Assembly: GCF_013694245.2 (NCBI RefSeq)
Contig: NZ_CP059322.2
Location: forward strand, 2,476,001-2,540,000
DNA length: 64,000 bases
Direction: 5' to 3'
Source: Micromonospora ferruginea
GTDB taxonomy: Bacteria; Actinomycetota; Actinomycetes; Mycobacteriales; Micromonosporaceae
Below, piece after piece: positions 26,811-27,776 of the stretch (its first letter is position 1; each line of letters starts with the position of its first letter). The notes below the pieces were generated by a model. That model was not told the DNA's origin, did not search any database, and saw only the letters and a list, made by a program, of their open reading frames with translations. The position numbers and the translations under genes are program-made.

Positions 26811-26853
26811 CTACTGAGCGCTGACCTGCGACCCAACCCCTACGGACCCCTCA
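26808..26853 (-). promoter_or_regulatory. Promoter P3 with doubled ACCCCT box, upstream of the M7-M10 PKS
   Basis: Read on the minus strand: TGAGGGGT (26853-26846), GTAGGGGT (26843-26836), -35 TTGGGT (26836-26831), a 17-nt spacer, -10 TAGCGT (26813-26808). The expected start of transcription is near 26801, about 100 nt before the PKS ATG. The block GCGCTGACCTGCGAC followed by AACCCCTA (plus-strand sense, 26818-26842) is almost repeated at promoter P1 (47296-47318). It overlaps the apparent 3' end of the hydrolase gene, which suggests that this DNA is regulatory rather than coding. Confidence 0.6.
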
Positions 26854-27776
26854 TTCGCCGGTCCCGGCGGGGGGTCCGGGCGGGCCGGCGGACCGTCAGC
26901 GGAGCTGCCCGGCGAGCGCCGGGAGGATGGCCCGGGGCGGCCGGGCGGGGTGGCGCGGCGGCGCCACTCGCGGGGGTAGCCGACGGACACCTCTTCGAAC
27001 CGGACGCCGTCGTGGCGGGTGCTGCGCGGGATGTGCAGGTGCCCGTAGACGGCGACGCGGGCGTCGTAGTGCAGGTGCCAGTCGGCGGTGAGGTCGGTGC
27101 CGCACCACTGGGCGAACTCGGGGTGGCGCAGGATCCGGGTCGGTTCGCGGACCAGCGGGTAGTGGTTGACCAGCACGGTGGGCAGGCCGCCGCGCTCGGC
27201 GTCGAGCCGCCGTTCGGTGCGGATGACCCGGGCCCGGCACCAGGCGTCCCGGCTCGGGTACGGGTCCGGGTGCAGCAGGATCTCGTCGGTGCACACCACC
27301 CCGGTCTCGTACGCCAGCGCCAGCGCTTGGGCCCGGTTGTAGGTGCCCGGCGGCCGCCACGAGTGGTCGTACCCGACGAACAGCGGCACCACCAGCACCG
27401 GGTCGCCGTCGGCGTCCCACACCGGGTAGGGATCCTCCGGGGTGAGGACGCCGAGCCGCCGGCACGTCGCCACCAGGTGCCGGTAGCGGGCCTCGCCGCG
27501 CAACTGCACCGGGTCGTCGCGGGGCGTCCACAGCTCGTGGTTGCCGGGCGACCAGACGACCCGGGCGAAGCGCCGGGCGAGCAGGCCGAGCGCCCACTCG
27601 ACGTCGTGCAGGTACTCGCCGACGTCCCCGGCGACGATCAGCCAGTCGTCGTCGCCGTCGGGGCGCAGCCGTTCGACCAGCGCCCGGTTCTCGGCGTGCC
27701 CGACGTGCAGGTCACTGATGGCGAGCAGCCGGCCACCCCTAGCCGCGTGCGTACCCCTAGCTGCGGCGCCGGTCAC
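26811..27776 (-). CDS. PptH-like metallophosphoesterase (probable 4'-phosphopantetheine hydrolase)
   Basis: Calcineurin-like metal-dependent phosphoesterase of 321 residues. Start GTG at 27776 overlaps the stop of the upstream PKS gene as GTGA, so translation is coupled. Metal-site motifs: SDLH (D22, H24), AGDV (D51), GNHE (78-81), VNH (203-205), YGHLH (244-248). Stretches such as DDWLIVAGDV, DAWCRARV, YGHLHIPR and VRFEEVSVGYPREWRRR recall M. tuberculosis Rv2795c (PptH, about 324 aa), which is cotranscribed with the phosphopantetheinyl transferase PptT and removes phosphopantetheine from carrier proteins; this comparison is from memory, not an alignment. Here the neighbours are PKS genes and no transferase is seen. 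Residues 275-321 are a Pro/Gly/Ser-rich tail unlike the family; a shifted frame ends at 26896 with a more plausible ending. Residues 7-14 contain two AGG codons lying in duplicated CTAGGGGT boxes. Confidence 0.88.
   Translation of the reverse strand: MTGAAARGTHAARGGRLLAISDLHVGHAENRALVERLRPDGDDDWLIVAGDVGEYLHDVEWALGLLARRFARVVWSPGNHELWTPRDDPVQLRGEARYRHLVATCRRLGVLTPEDPYPVWDADGDPVLVVPLFVGYDHSWRPPGTYNRAQALALAYETGVVCTDEILLHPDPYPSRDAWCRARVIRTERRLDAERGGLPTVLVNHYPLVREPTRILRHPEFAQWCGTDLTADWHLHYDARVAVYGHLHIPRSTRHDGVRFEEVSVGYPREWRRRATPPGRPGPSSRRSPGSSADGPPARPDPPPGPANEGSVGVGSQVSAQ
27735..27760 (-). promoter_or_regulatory. Two direct ACCCCTAG boxes at the start of the hydrolase gene
   Basis: ACCCCTAG occurs at 27735-27742 and 27753-27760, 18 bp apart, inside the first codons of the hydrolase gene and just past the end of the M4-M6 PKS gene. 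The same octamer or a one-base variant marks promoters P1, P2 and P3. No TANNNT -10 element is seen at the 22-23 nt distance found at those promoters, so these may be weak or accessory operator sites, or an internal promoter of another type. Confidence 0.4.

What the first reader, a model, noticed from the sequence alone, without database searches (positions are those of the whole stretch)
26811..27776. A PptH-like phosphopantetheine hydrolase is built into a PKS operon
The gene between two giant PKS genes has all metallophosphoesterase motifs and, from memory, strongly resembles M. tuberculosis PptH (Rv2795c), which converts holo- to apo-carrier proteins and opposes PptT. In mycobacteria it is paired with the transferase; here it is GTGA-coupled to a PKS and sits among at least eleven carrier proteins. 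A dedicated holo-ACP 'eraser' could reset carrier proteins blocked by wrong acyl-phosphopantetheine arms, a carrier-level proofreading that would complement the type II thioesterase at 47433. I know of no described role of this kind in polyketide assembly.
Basis: partly seen in the sequence, partly recalled or inferred. Interest (0 to 1): 0.82.

Follow-up and report, generated by a model that had tools for sequence, protein, structure and literature searches.

The report
Carrier-arm remover in giant polyketide cluster
A gene between two huge antibiotic-assembly genes very probably makes an enzyme that strips the working arm off carrier proteins; similar genes have been reported beside the opposite enzyme in other antibiotic clusters, but what they are for remains open.

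Summary
Window 26811-27776 (minus strand, 321 aa) overlaps the upstream PKS gene by GTGA. It is a strong PptH relative: 58% identical to the solved chain 6unc_A over 260 residues, with C225, H246 and H248 kept. No other PDB sequence comes near.

The host cluster matches published quinolidomicin-cluster orthologs, module count for module count in 13 PKS genes, about 33 carrier domains. The copy is cluster-specific: 9 of 10 same-genus genomes with the cluster's methyltransferase carry this PptH type, against 0 of 51 without. It is under purifying selection. The genome keeps a second PptH 30 bp from a PPTase.

Two parts of the reading need correction. A PPTase lies at the cluster's far edge, about 148 kb away, found in 9 of 10 carriers. 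And a 2020 paper already says phosphoesterases in polyketide clusters may hydrolyse ACP-bound phosphopantetheine.

Best reading: a cluster-dedicated carrier-protein phosphopantetheine hydrolase, working with that PPTase. Carrier reset or proofreading is plausible but untested. New member of a known kind, in an unusual arrangement.

The parts
26811..27776 (-). PptH-type metallophosphoesterase, 321 aa, GTG start; predicted carrier-protein phosphopantetheine hydrolase
27773..27776 (-). GTGA overlap: TGA stop of the upstream PKS gene and GTG start of the pptH-like gene
   Evidence: sequence; ORFs; 4-base overlap also in L009 and L115, not in the other 9 loci where an upstream PKS end was seen
27773..41746 (-). 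Type I PKS, 3 modules (KS-AT-KR-ACP), counterpart of qnmA3 without module 4
   Evidence: compared with the domain table of PMC8698034 seen as passages
2828..26770 (-). Type I PKS, 4 modules (three with DH-ER-KR, one with KR), counterpart of qnmA4 (modules 8-11); real start perhaps the ATG near 26701
2..2809 (-). Start of a 6-module PKS gene (9958 aa) that runs out of the window
41768..47362 (-). Type I PKS, 1 module (KS-AT-DH-KR-ACP), counterpart of qnmA2; exact start not settled (open frame reaches 47716)
47433..48188 (+).
   Evidence: PF00975 E 1e-52
48241..49128 (-). SAM methyltransferase, used here as marker of the cluster
49159..50748 (-). FAD-dependent monooxygenase (start not settled)
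   Evidence: PF01494
50751..64000 (-). Loading PKS (AMP-binding C-terminal part seen in the window, ACP, 2 modules), counterpart of qnmA1; runs on to genome 2541336, i.e. 1336 bases past the window

Best explanation
The gene encodes a PptH-type, metal-dependent phosphodiesterase that cleaves the phosphodiester between the carrier-protein serine and 4'-phosphopantetheine, turning holo (and probably S-acylated) carrier domains of this quinolidomicin-type PKS into apo forms. A PPTase coded at the far edge of the same cluster can then re-arm them. The two would work as eraser and writer for the roughly 33 carriers of this assembly line, beside the type II thioesterase. Shown by sequence: family membership, intact active site, cluster-specific conservation, purifying selection, and a PPTase gene at the cluster edge. 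Inferred: the reaction, the substrates, and the purpose (clearing dead or mis-primed arms, which I hold more likely than shutting the synthase down).
For: 58.1% identity over 260 residues to 6unc_A, with C225, H246 and H248 (numbering of PMC8557913) kept in 17 of 17 aligned rows. Profile search of PDB sequences: 6unc_A E 1.6e-128, next best 0.15. The resident second copy (66%; 67% over 263 residues) lies 30 bp from a PPTase, and 34 of 80 named relatives have a PPTase within 1.5 kb, so the family is often tied to carrier priming. Of 61 same-genus genomes, 10 have the cluster's methyltransferase at E<=1e-50; 9 of these 10 have a PptH of 75% identity or more, and none of the other 51 do (Fisher p 6e-10; the 75% line was drawn after seeing the list, where the next copy has 73%). 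PptH lies 20.5-26.3 kb from the methyltransferase on the same strand in the 6 genomes where both are on one contig (coordinates). All 8 fetched same-genus orthologs have a KS domain within 0.5 kb and no PPTase in the fetched stretch. dN/dS 0.13-0.30 against 14 loci of the clade. PPTase relatives of 73% or more in 9 of 10 carriers and 3 of 51 others (p 1e-7). Published biochemistry (PMC8557913: parts 1-2, passages and discussion read): PptH removes the arm from several holo carriers including a PKS ACP, and removes arms whose thiol carries a bulky biotin-PEG group.
Against: No activity has been measured for this protein, and none is reported for a cluster-encoded homologue in the passages I saw. 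The published PptH has no known physiological role, no detectable CoA-salvage role and was not required in mice. The cluster-edge PPTase also sits in 3 genomes without the cluster marker, in one of them with about 95% nucleotide identity right up to the PPTase start, so it may belong to a neighbouring locus; in G008 only about 150 of its 221 residues align. Most PptH copies in the genus (45 of 76) have neither a PPTase nor a PKS KS domain in the fetched stretch, so the family may have uses beyond cluster carriers. One of 10 carriers (G023, a 990-contig draft) shows no cluster-type PptH.
Confidence: 0.62

Rival explanations
1. Switch-off rather than repair: the hydrolase lowers the holo fraction of the PKS to limit or end production, for example when CoA is short, as a regulatory counterpart of the PPTase.
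For: Same chemistry and genes as the best explanation. The discussion of PMC8557913 cites work that arm turnover on holo-ACP rises when CoA is low, and says the role is unknown. Some relatives lie next to genes about 900-1050 aa long that look like large regulators (my reading of the letters, not run through Pfam).
Against: In the window the gene overlaps a PKS gene and so is probably made together with the synthase, which suits maintenance better than shut-off; but that overlap is not conserved. No CoA-salvage role was detected for the mycobacterial enzyme.
Confidence: 0.2
2. Different substrate: the cluster copy has drifted to another phosphodiester or phosphoester, such as a CoA-type molecule or a phosphorylated intermediate.
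For: Metallophosphoesterases are often promiscuous (general knowledge). PMC8557913 could not rule out small-molecule substrates. The window protein has changes in otherwise well kept stretches (for example YDHS where 6unc and the resident copy have YDYS, alignment).
Against: 119 of 269 columns are invariant across 17 rows including 6unc and the PPTase-linked resident copy. The starter-unit genes already include a HAD-type hydrolase, so no missing phosphatase step is evident.
Confidence: 0.12
3. Passenger gene: a copied resident pptH without a role in the pathway.
For: The genome already has a PptH. Upstream spacing varies, and other genes lie upstream of it in M. okii.
Against: Present in 9 of 10 carriers, and on the same strand at 20.5-26.3 kb from the marker in the 6 genomes where this can be measured; dN/dS 0.13-0.30.
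Confidence: 0.06

Closest known systems
PptH (Rv2795c) of M. tuberculosis, structure 6UNC
   Same: 58% identity over 260 residues, C225, H246 and H248, similar length, single Metallophos domain
   Different: Not beside a PPTase; coded between modular PKS genes; a second copy holds the PPTase-paired place in this genome
mad4 of the tetromadurin cluster and the homologues it cites in other polyketide clusters (ref 59, maklamicin; and ref 8)
   Same: Phosphoesterase in a polyketide cluster, with a suggested role in hydrolysing ACP-bound phosphopantetheine (PMC7489565, passages)
   Different: mad4 is adjacent to the PPTase gene mad3; here the PPTase gene is about 148 kb away. The mad4 sequence was not compared here
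abmL/abmK of the neoabyssomicin cluster
   Same: Metallophosphoesterase (281 aa) listed next to a PPTase in a polyketide cluster (PMC5819245, passage)
   Different: Adjacent pair; no function proposed in the passage seen; sequence not compared here
Calcineurin-like phosphoesterase gene overlapping the SCO6673-type PPTase gene in Streptomyces
   Same: Same kind of context: Pfam00149 gene directly upstream of a broad PPTase (PMC3909215, passages)
   Different: Described there for most sequenced Streptomyces, not as part of a polyketide cluster
Quinolidomicin (qnm) cluster of M. chalcea and orthologs
   Same: Same number of modules in each of 13 PKS genes as in the ortholog of TP-A0316, and the same missing module 4; M. 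okii (L010), which has an ortholog in print, carries the gene at 80% identity
   Different: In the loading gene only one DH domain was found where the table has two. The original 2018 paper is not held, so I could not see how its authors annotated this gene
AcpH-type ACP phosphodiesterases
   Same: Same reaction by published account
   Different: Unrelated HD-type family, reported as limited to Gram-negatives

Membership tests
PptH-type phosphopantetheinyl hydrolase | Sequence similarity to PptH over the whole domain, well above other metallophosphoesterases | tested here: met
   phmmer 1.4e-103; profile 1.6e-128 against 0.15 for the next chain. That 6unc is Mtb PptH is recalled; with a numbering offset of three, C225, H246 and H248 fall exactly on C, H and H
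PptH-type phosphopantetheinyl hydrolase | Residues tied to activity or metal binding: H246, C225, H248 | tested here: met
   Identical in 17 of 17 rows; roles from PMC8557913
PptH-type phosphopantetheinyl hydrolase | PptH fold with Mn-Fe binuclear site | not testable with these tools
PptH-type phosphopantetheinyl hydrolase | Removes phosphopantetheine from holo carrier proteins | not testable with these tools
   Needs an enzyme assay
PptH-PPTase gene pair | Gene directly beside a PPTase gene | tested here: not met
   Of the 4 PPTase-family places in the genome the nearest is about 148 kb away. The resident second copy meets it (30 bp)
Quinolidomicin-type biosynthetic cluster | Loading ligase-ACP, then PKS genes in the qnmA order with more than 30 modules | tested here: met
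   32 KS, 33 ACP and 32 AT domains in 13 PKS genes; modules per gene (2,1,3,4,6,2,3,2,3,2,1,2,1) equal those listed for TP-A0316 in PMC8698034 (passages). Mismatch: one DH fewer in the loading gene. Reductive domains compared only for the five PKS genes in the window
Quinolidomicin-type biosynthetic cluster | AHBA-type starter genes beside the loading PKS | tested here: met
   DHQ synthase, GFO/IDH/MocA, DegT aminotransferase, HAD and ROK proteins beside the loading PKS; their link to AHBA, and AHBA as a feature of this cluster type, are general knowledge, not from a call

The most novel reading that the evidence does not exclude
A giant modular PKS carries its own eraser and writer of phosphopantetheine arms, split between the middle and the far edge of the cluster, so that any of about 33 carriers blocked by a wrong or dead acyl-arm is stripped whole and re-armed: carrier-level proofreading that goes beyond type II thioesterases and would give the unexplained PptH family its first physiological role.
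Probability: 0.3. Interest if true: 0.75.

Novelty: new member of a known kind. Interest (0 to 1): 0.42.

Why it matters
The purpose of carrier-protein phosphopantetheine hydrolases is stated in print to be unknown (PMC8557913). A cluster-dedicated copy gives a system where the substrate set is defined (about 33 carriers of one synthase), where loss should be tolerated because a resident PptH and other PPTases remain (inference), and where the read-out is product titre. If it does reset carriers, it is a transferable part for engineered long assembly lines.

Tried and rejected
Tried and rejected: (1) That the gene is an AHBA-pathway phosphatase: the starter genes include their own HAD-type protein beside the DegT and ROK genes. 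(2) That the cluster lacks a PPTase: rejected after reading the far end. (3) That PptH and the cluster-edge PPTase were captured together as one pair: PptH of L015 (Actinoplanes, PPTase-adjacent) groups with the cluster clade (100/97), but the PPTase clade (100/99) has no supported sister and the bootstrap had not settled; unresolved. (4) That PptH is confined to mycobacteria, as PMC8557913 says: hits at E<=1e-30 in 59 of 61 genus genomes, 18 of 79 class genomes and 4 of 60 phylum genomes, each count including the window's own genome, and in the 80 named loci kept, none mycobacterial by title. (5) That the GTGA overlap is conserved: of 14 other loci (L012 and L122 near-duplicates), 2 have a 4-base overlap, 9 have gaps of about 60-280 bases to the first possible start, and 3 showed no upstream PKS end nearby. 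(6) That adjacency to a PPTase is the rule: 19 of 76 genus copies and 34 of 80 named loci. Limits: neighbour genes were called by a simple GC-frame script, KS by tblastn or motifs, NRPS by motifs only, PPTase by a home-built profile; many contigs end close to the gene, so 'neither' counts are upper bounds. Nine of 80 rows had a stop inside the tblastn stretch and were cut there before the tree; the same cut was made. dN/dS against the resident copy is 0.53. Literature: 10 searches used, open-licence PMC only. The maklamicin and quinolidomicin cluster papers are not held.

Full report
What was checked. The ORF 26811-27776 is on the minus strand, 321 aa, GTG start, sharing GTGA with the stop of the upstream PKS gene. 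It has one Metallophos domain (PF00149, E 2e-16). NCBIfam gives no match over a cut-off. Among PDB chain sequences only 6unc_A matches at E<=1 (1.4e-103). With a profile of 18 relatives, 6unc_A scores 1.6e-128 and the next chain 0.15. Identity to 6unc_A is 58.1% over 260 residues. C225, H246 and H248, the residues tied to activity or the metal site of PptH (PMC8557913), are identical in 17 of 17 rows aligned, and in a 14-row alignment they carry the same numbers in the window protein. That 6unc is M. tuberculosis PptH is recalled; the PDB tool names it only as a metallophos protein, but the numbering fits with an offset of three.

Where it sits. The window belongs to a 6.70 Mb single-contig genome (G000; window at 2476001-2540000); its nearest named relative for this gene is a Micromonospora (L009, 97%). 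I read 264 kb around it. Thirteen PKS genes on one strand run from 2366862 to 2541336, with 32 KS, 33 carrier and 32 AT domains by home-built profiles. Beside the loading PKS lie a DHQ synthase-like protein, a DegT aminotransferase, a GFO/IDH/MocA oxidoreductase, a HAD protein and a ROK protein: the set known from 3-amino-5-hydroxybenzoate pathways (general knowledge). Modules per gene from loading end to release end are 2,1,3,4,6,2,3,2,3,2,1,2,1, the same as listed for the quinolidomicin-cluster ortholog of Micromonospora sp. TP-A0316, which like that of M. okii TP-A0468 lacks module 4 (PMC8698034, passages and section 6). One mismatch: the table gives the loading gene a DH in both modules, and I found one. 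In TP-A0316 the ORF numbers leave exactly one ORF between the qnmA3 and qnmA4 counterparts (1-1078 and 1-1080), where this gene lies here. M. okii TP-A0468 carries the gene at 80% identity (L010), directly before a PKS gene, with other genes upstream.

A cluster-specific copy. In 61 genomes of the genus (drawn evenly from a larger group, own genome included), 59 have a PptH at E<=1e-30 and 76 copies are listed. The cluster's methyltransferase occurs at E<=1e-50 in 10 of the 61. Nine of those 10 have a PptH at 75% identity or more, against none of the other 51 (Fisher p 6e-10; the line was set after seeing the list, where the next copy is at 73%). The exception, G023, is a draft in about 990 contigs whose only listed PptH copy is PPTase-adjacent. 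Where PptH and methyltransferase are on one contig (6 genomes) they are 20.5-26.3 kb apart on the same strand (coordinates). Fetched regions for the 8 carriers other than the own genome show a KS domain within 0.5 kb and no PPTase in the stretch. In a tree of 82 rows the window falls with L009-L014, all with PKS genes in the fetched stretch, though in L013 not directly alongside (88/63 for the seven; 97/93 for six of them), and these with L015, a PPTase-adjacent copy from Actinoplanes (100/97). dN/dS against 14 loci of this clade (L012 and L122 near-duplicates) is 0.13-0.30, and 0.53 against the resident copy (NG86).

The resident copy. The same genome has a second PptH at 3416296-3417114, 66% identical, 30 bp upstream of an Sfp-type PPTase. 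Of the 76 genus copies, 19 lie next to a PPTase, 9 are the cluster type, 3 others have a KS within the fetched stretch, and 45 have neither within about 9.5 kb or to the contig end (75 copies, plus the window). Of the 80 named loci kept from at least 559 matches, 34 have a PPTase within 1.5 kb, 8 have PKS motifs without a PPTase, and 38 have neither, one of these with NRPS motifs. So direct pairing is common but not the rule. Across the class the gene is found in 18 of 79 genomes and across the phylum in 4 of 60, the own genome counted in each. In the class survey only the own genome has two copies.

A PPTase at the cluster edge. A 4PPT_N plus ACPS protein is coded at 2354012-2354677, 12 kb beyond the last PKS gene and about 148 kb from this PptH. 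A relative at 73% identity or more exists in 9 of 10 carriers and in 3 of 51 others (p 1e-7). Where both are on one contig (7 genomes) the gap is 146-164 kb on the same strand (coordinates). Between it and the PKS lie a 462-aa gene related to a neighbouring AMP-binding ligase gene and two genes of about 950 and 1070 aa; all three are found beside it in the 8 relatives examined (these three were not run through Pfam). In G008 only about 150 of its 221 residues align, so it may be broken there. Against cluster ownership: in G013, which has neither the cluster's methyltransferase nor its PptH type, similarity to the own genome runs, with gaps, up to the PPTase start at about 95% nucleotide identity and then ends within the 19 kb fetched. 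I call it a conserved edge gene and leave its formal membership open.

What is in print. PMC7489565 (passages): phosphoesterase mad4 lies next to the PPTase gene mad3, homologues are found in other polyketide clusters (it cites refs 8 and 59; [quoted passage not shown] PMC5819245 (passage): abmL metallophosphoesterase beside abmK PPTase. PMC3909215 (passages): in most sequenced Streptomyces a calcineurin-like phosphoesterase gene overlaps the SCO6673-type PPTase gene. PMC12648119 (passages) lists a PPTase and a type II thioesterase in the concanamycin cluster. In loci L028, L033 and L035 (S. neyagawaensis, S. stelliscabiei, S. scabiei) the PptH relative lies between a thioesterase and a PPTase; that these loci are the concanamycin cluster is my inference from species and gene order. 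PMC8557913 (parts 1-2, passages, discussion) shows PptH removes the arm from several carriers, including a PKS ACP and arms with a biotin-PEG group on the thiol, and says the physiological role is unknown and that PptH appears limited to mycobacteria; the last point does not hold on my counts. I saw no test of it in the papers found; the searches behind that statement were made, open-licence papers only.

Mechanism. Shown by sequence: family, active site, cluster linkage, selection. Inferred: a metal-activated water cleaves the serine-phosphopantetheine bond of carriers in this PKS; the edge PPTase re-arms them; arms blocked with wrong acyl groups are thereby cleared. The biotin-PEG result makes tolerance of acylated arms plausible. 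Shut-off of the synthase uses the same chemistry and is the main rival. Sequence alone cannot tell these apart.

Verdict. Novelty is limited, because phosphoesterase genes in polyketide clusters and the proposed reaction are already described. What this work adds is that this copy is a cluster-specific second copy built between PKS genes, separated from the PPTase at the cluster's other edge, and that the family occurs well outside mycobacteria. Interest is moderate, because it makes an open question about Ppt hydrolases testable.

Noticed in passing
45 of 76 PptH copies in 61 same-genus genomes, for example L126 and L138: Most PptH copies in the genus have neither a PPTase nor a PKS KS domain in the fetched stretch, so the family's general role in these bacteria is not explained by gene pairing.
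   Followed up: partly
G000:C1:2354012-2354677 (L097) and G013:C1:1958877-1959536 (L106): The Sfp-type PPTase at the cluster edge is kept at about 95% nucleotide identity in a relative that lacks the cluster's marker genes; similarity ends at the PPTase start.
   Followed up: yes
L028, L033, L035: In three Streptomyces (neyagawaensis, stelliscabiei, scabiei) a PptH relative lies between a type II thioesterase and a PPTase, about 250 and 30 bases away.
   Followed up: partly
L013 (uncultured Streptomyces), 9935-10852: A close relative (81%) of the window protein in a Streptomyces PKS locus, with an ABC-transporter-like gene, a P450-like gene and a 939-aa gene around it rather than PKS genes directly alongside (names from my reading of the letters).
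   Followed up: no
window 46965-48188 +: The type II thioesterase is on the strand opposite to the PKS genes, unlike the PptH-like gene, which is inside the PKS gene row.
   Followed up: no
G008:C1:3023851-3024300: The cluster-edge PPTase of this relative aligns over only about 150 of 221 residues and may be broken.
   Followed up: no
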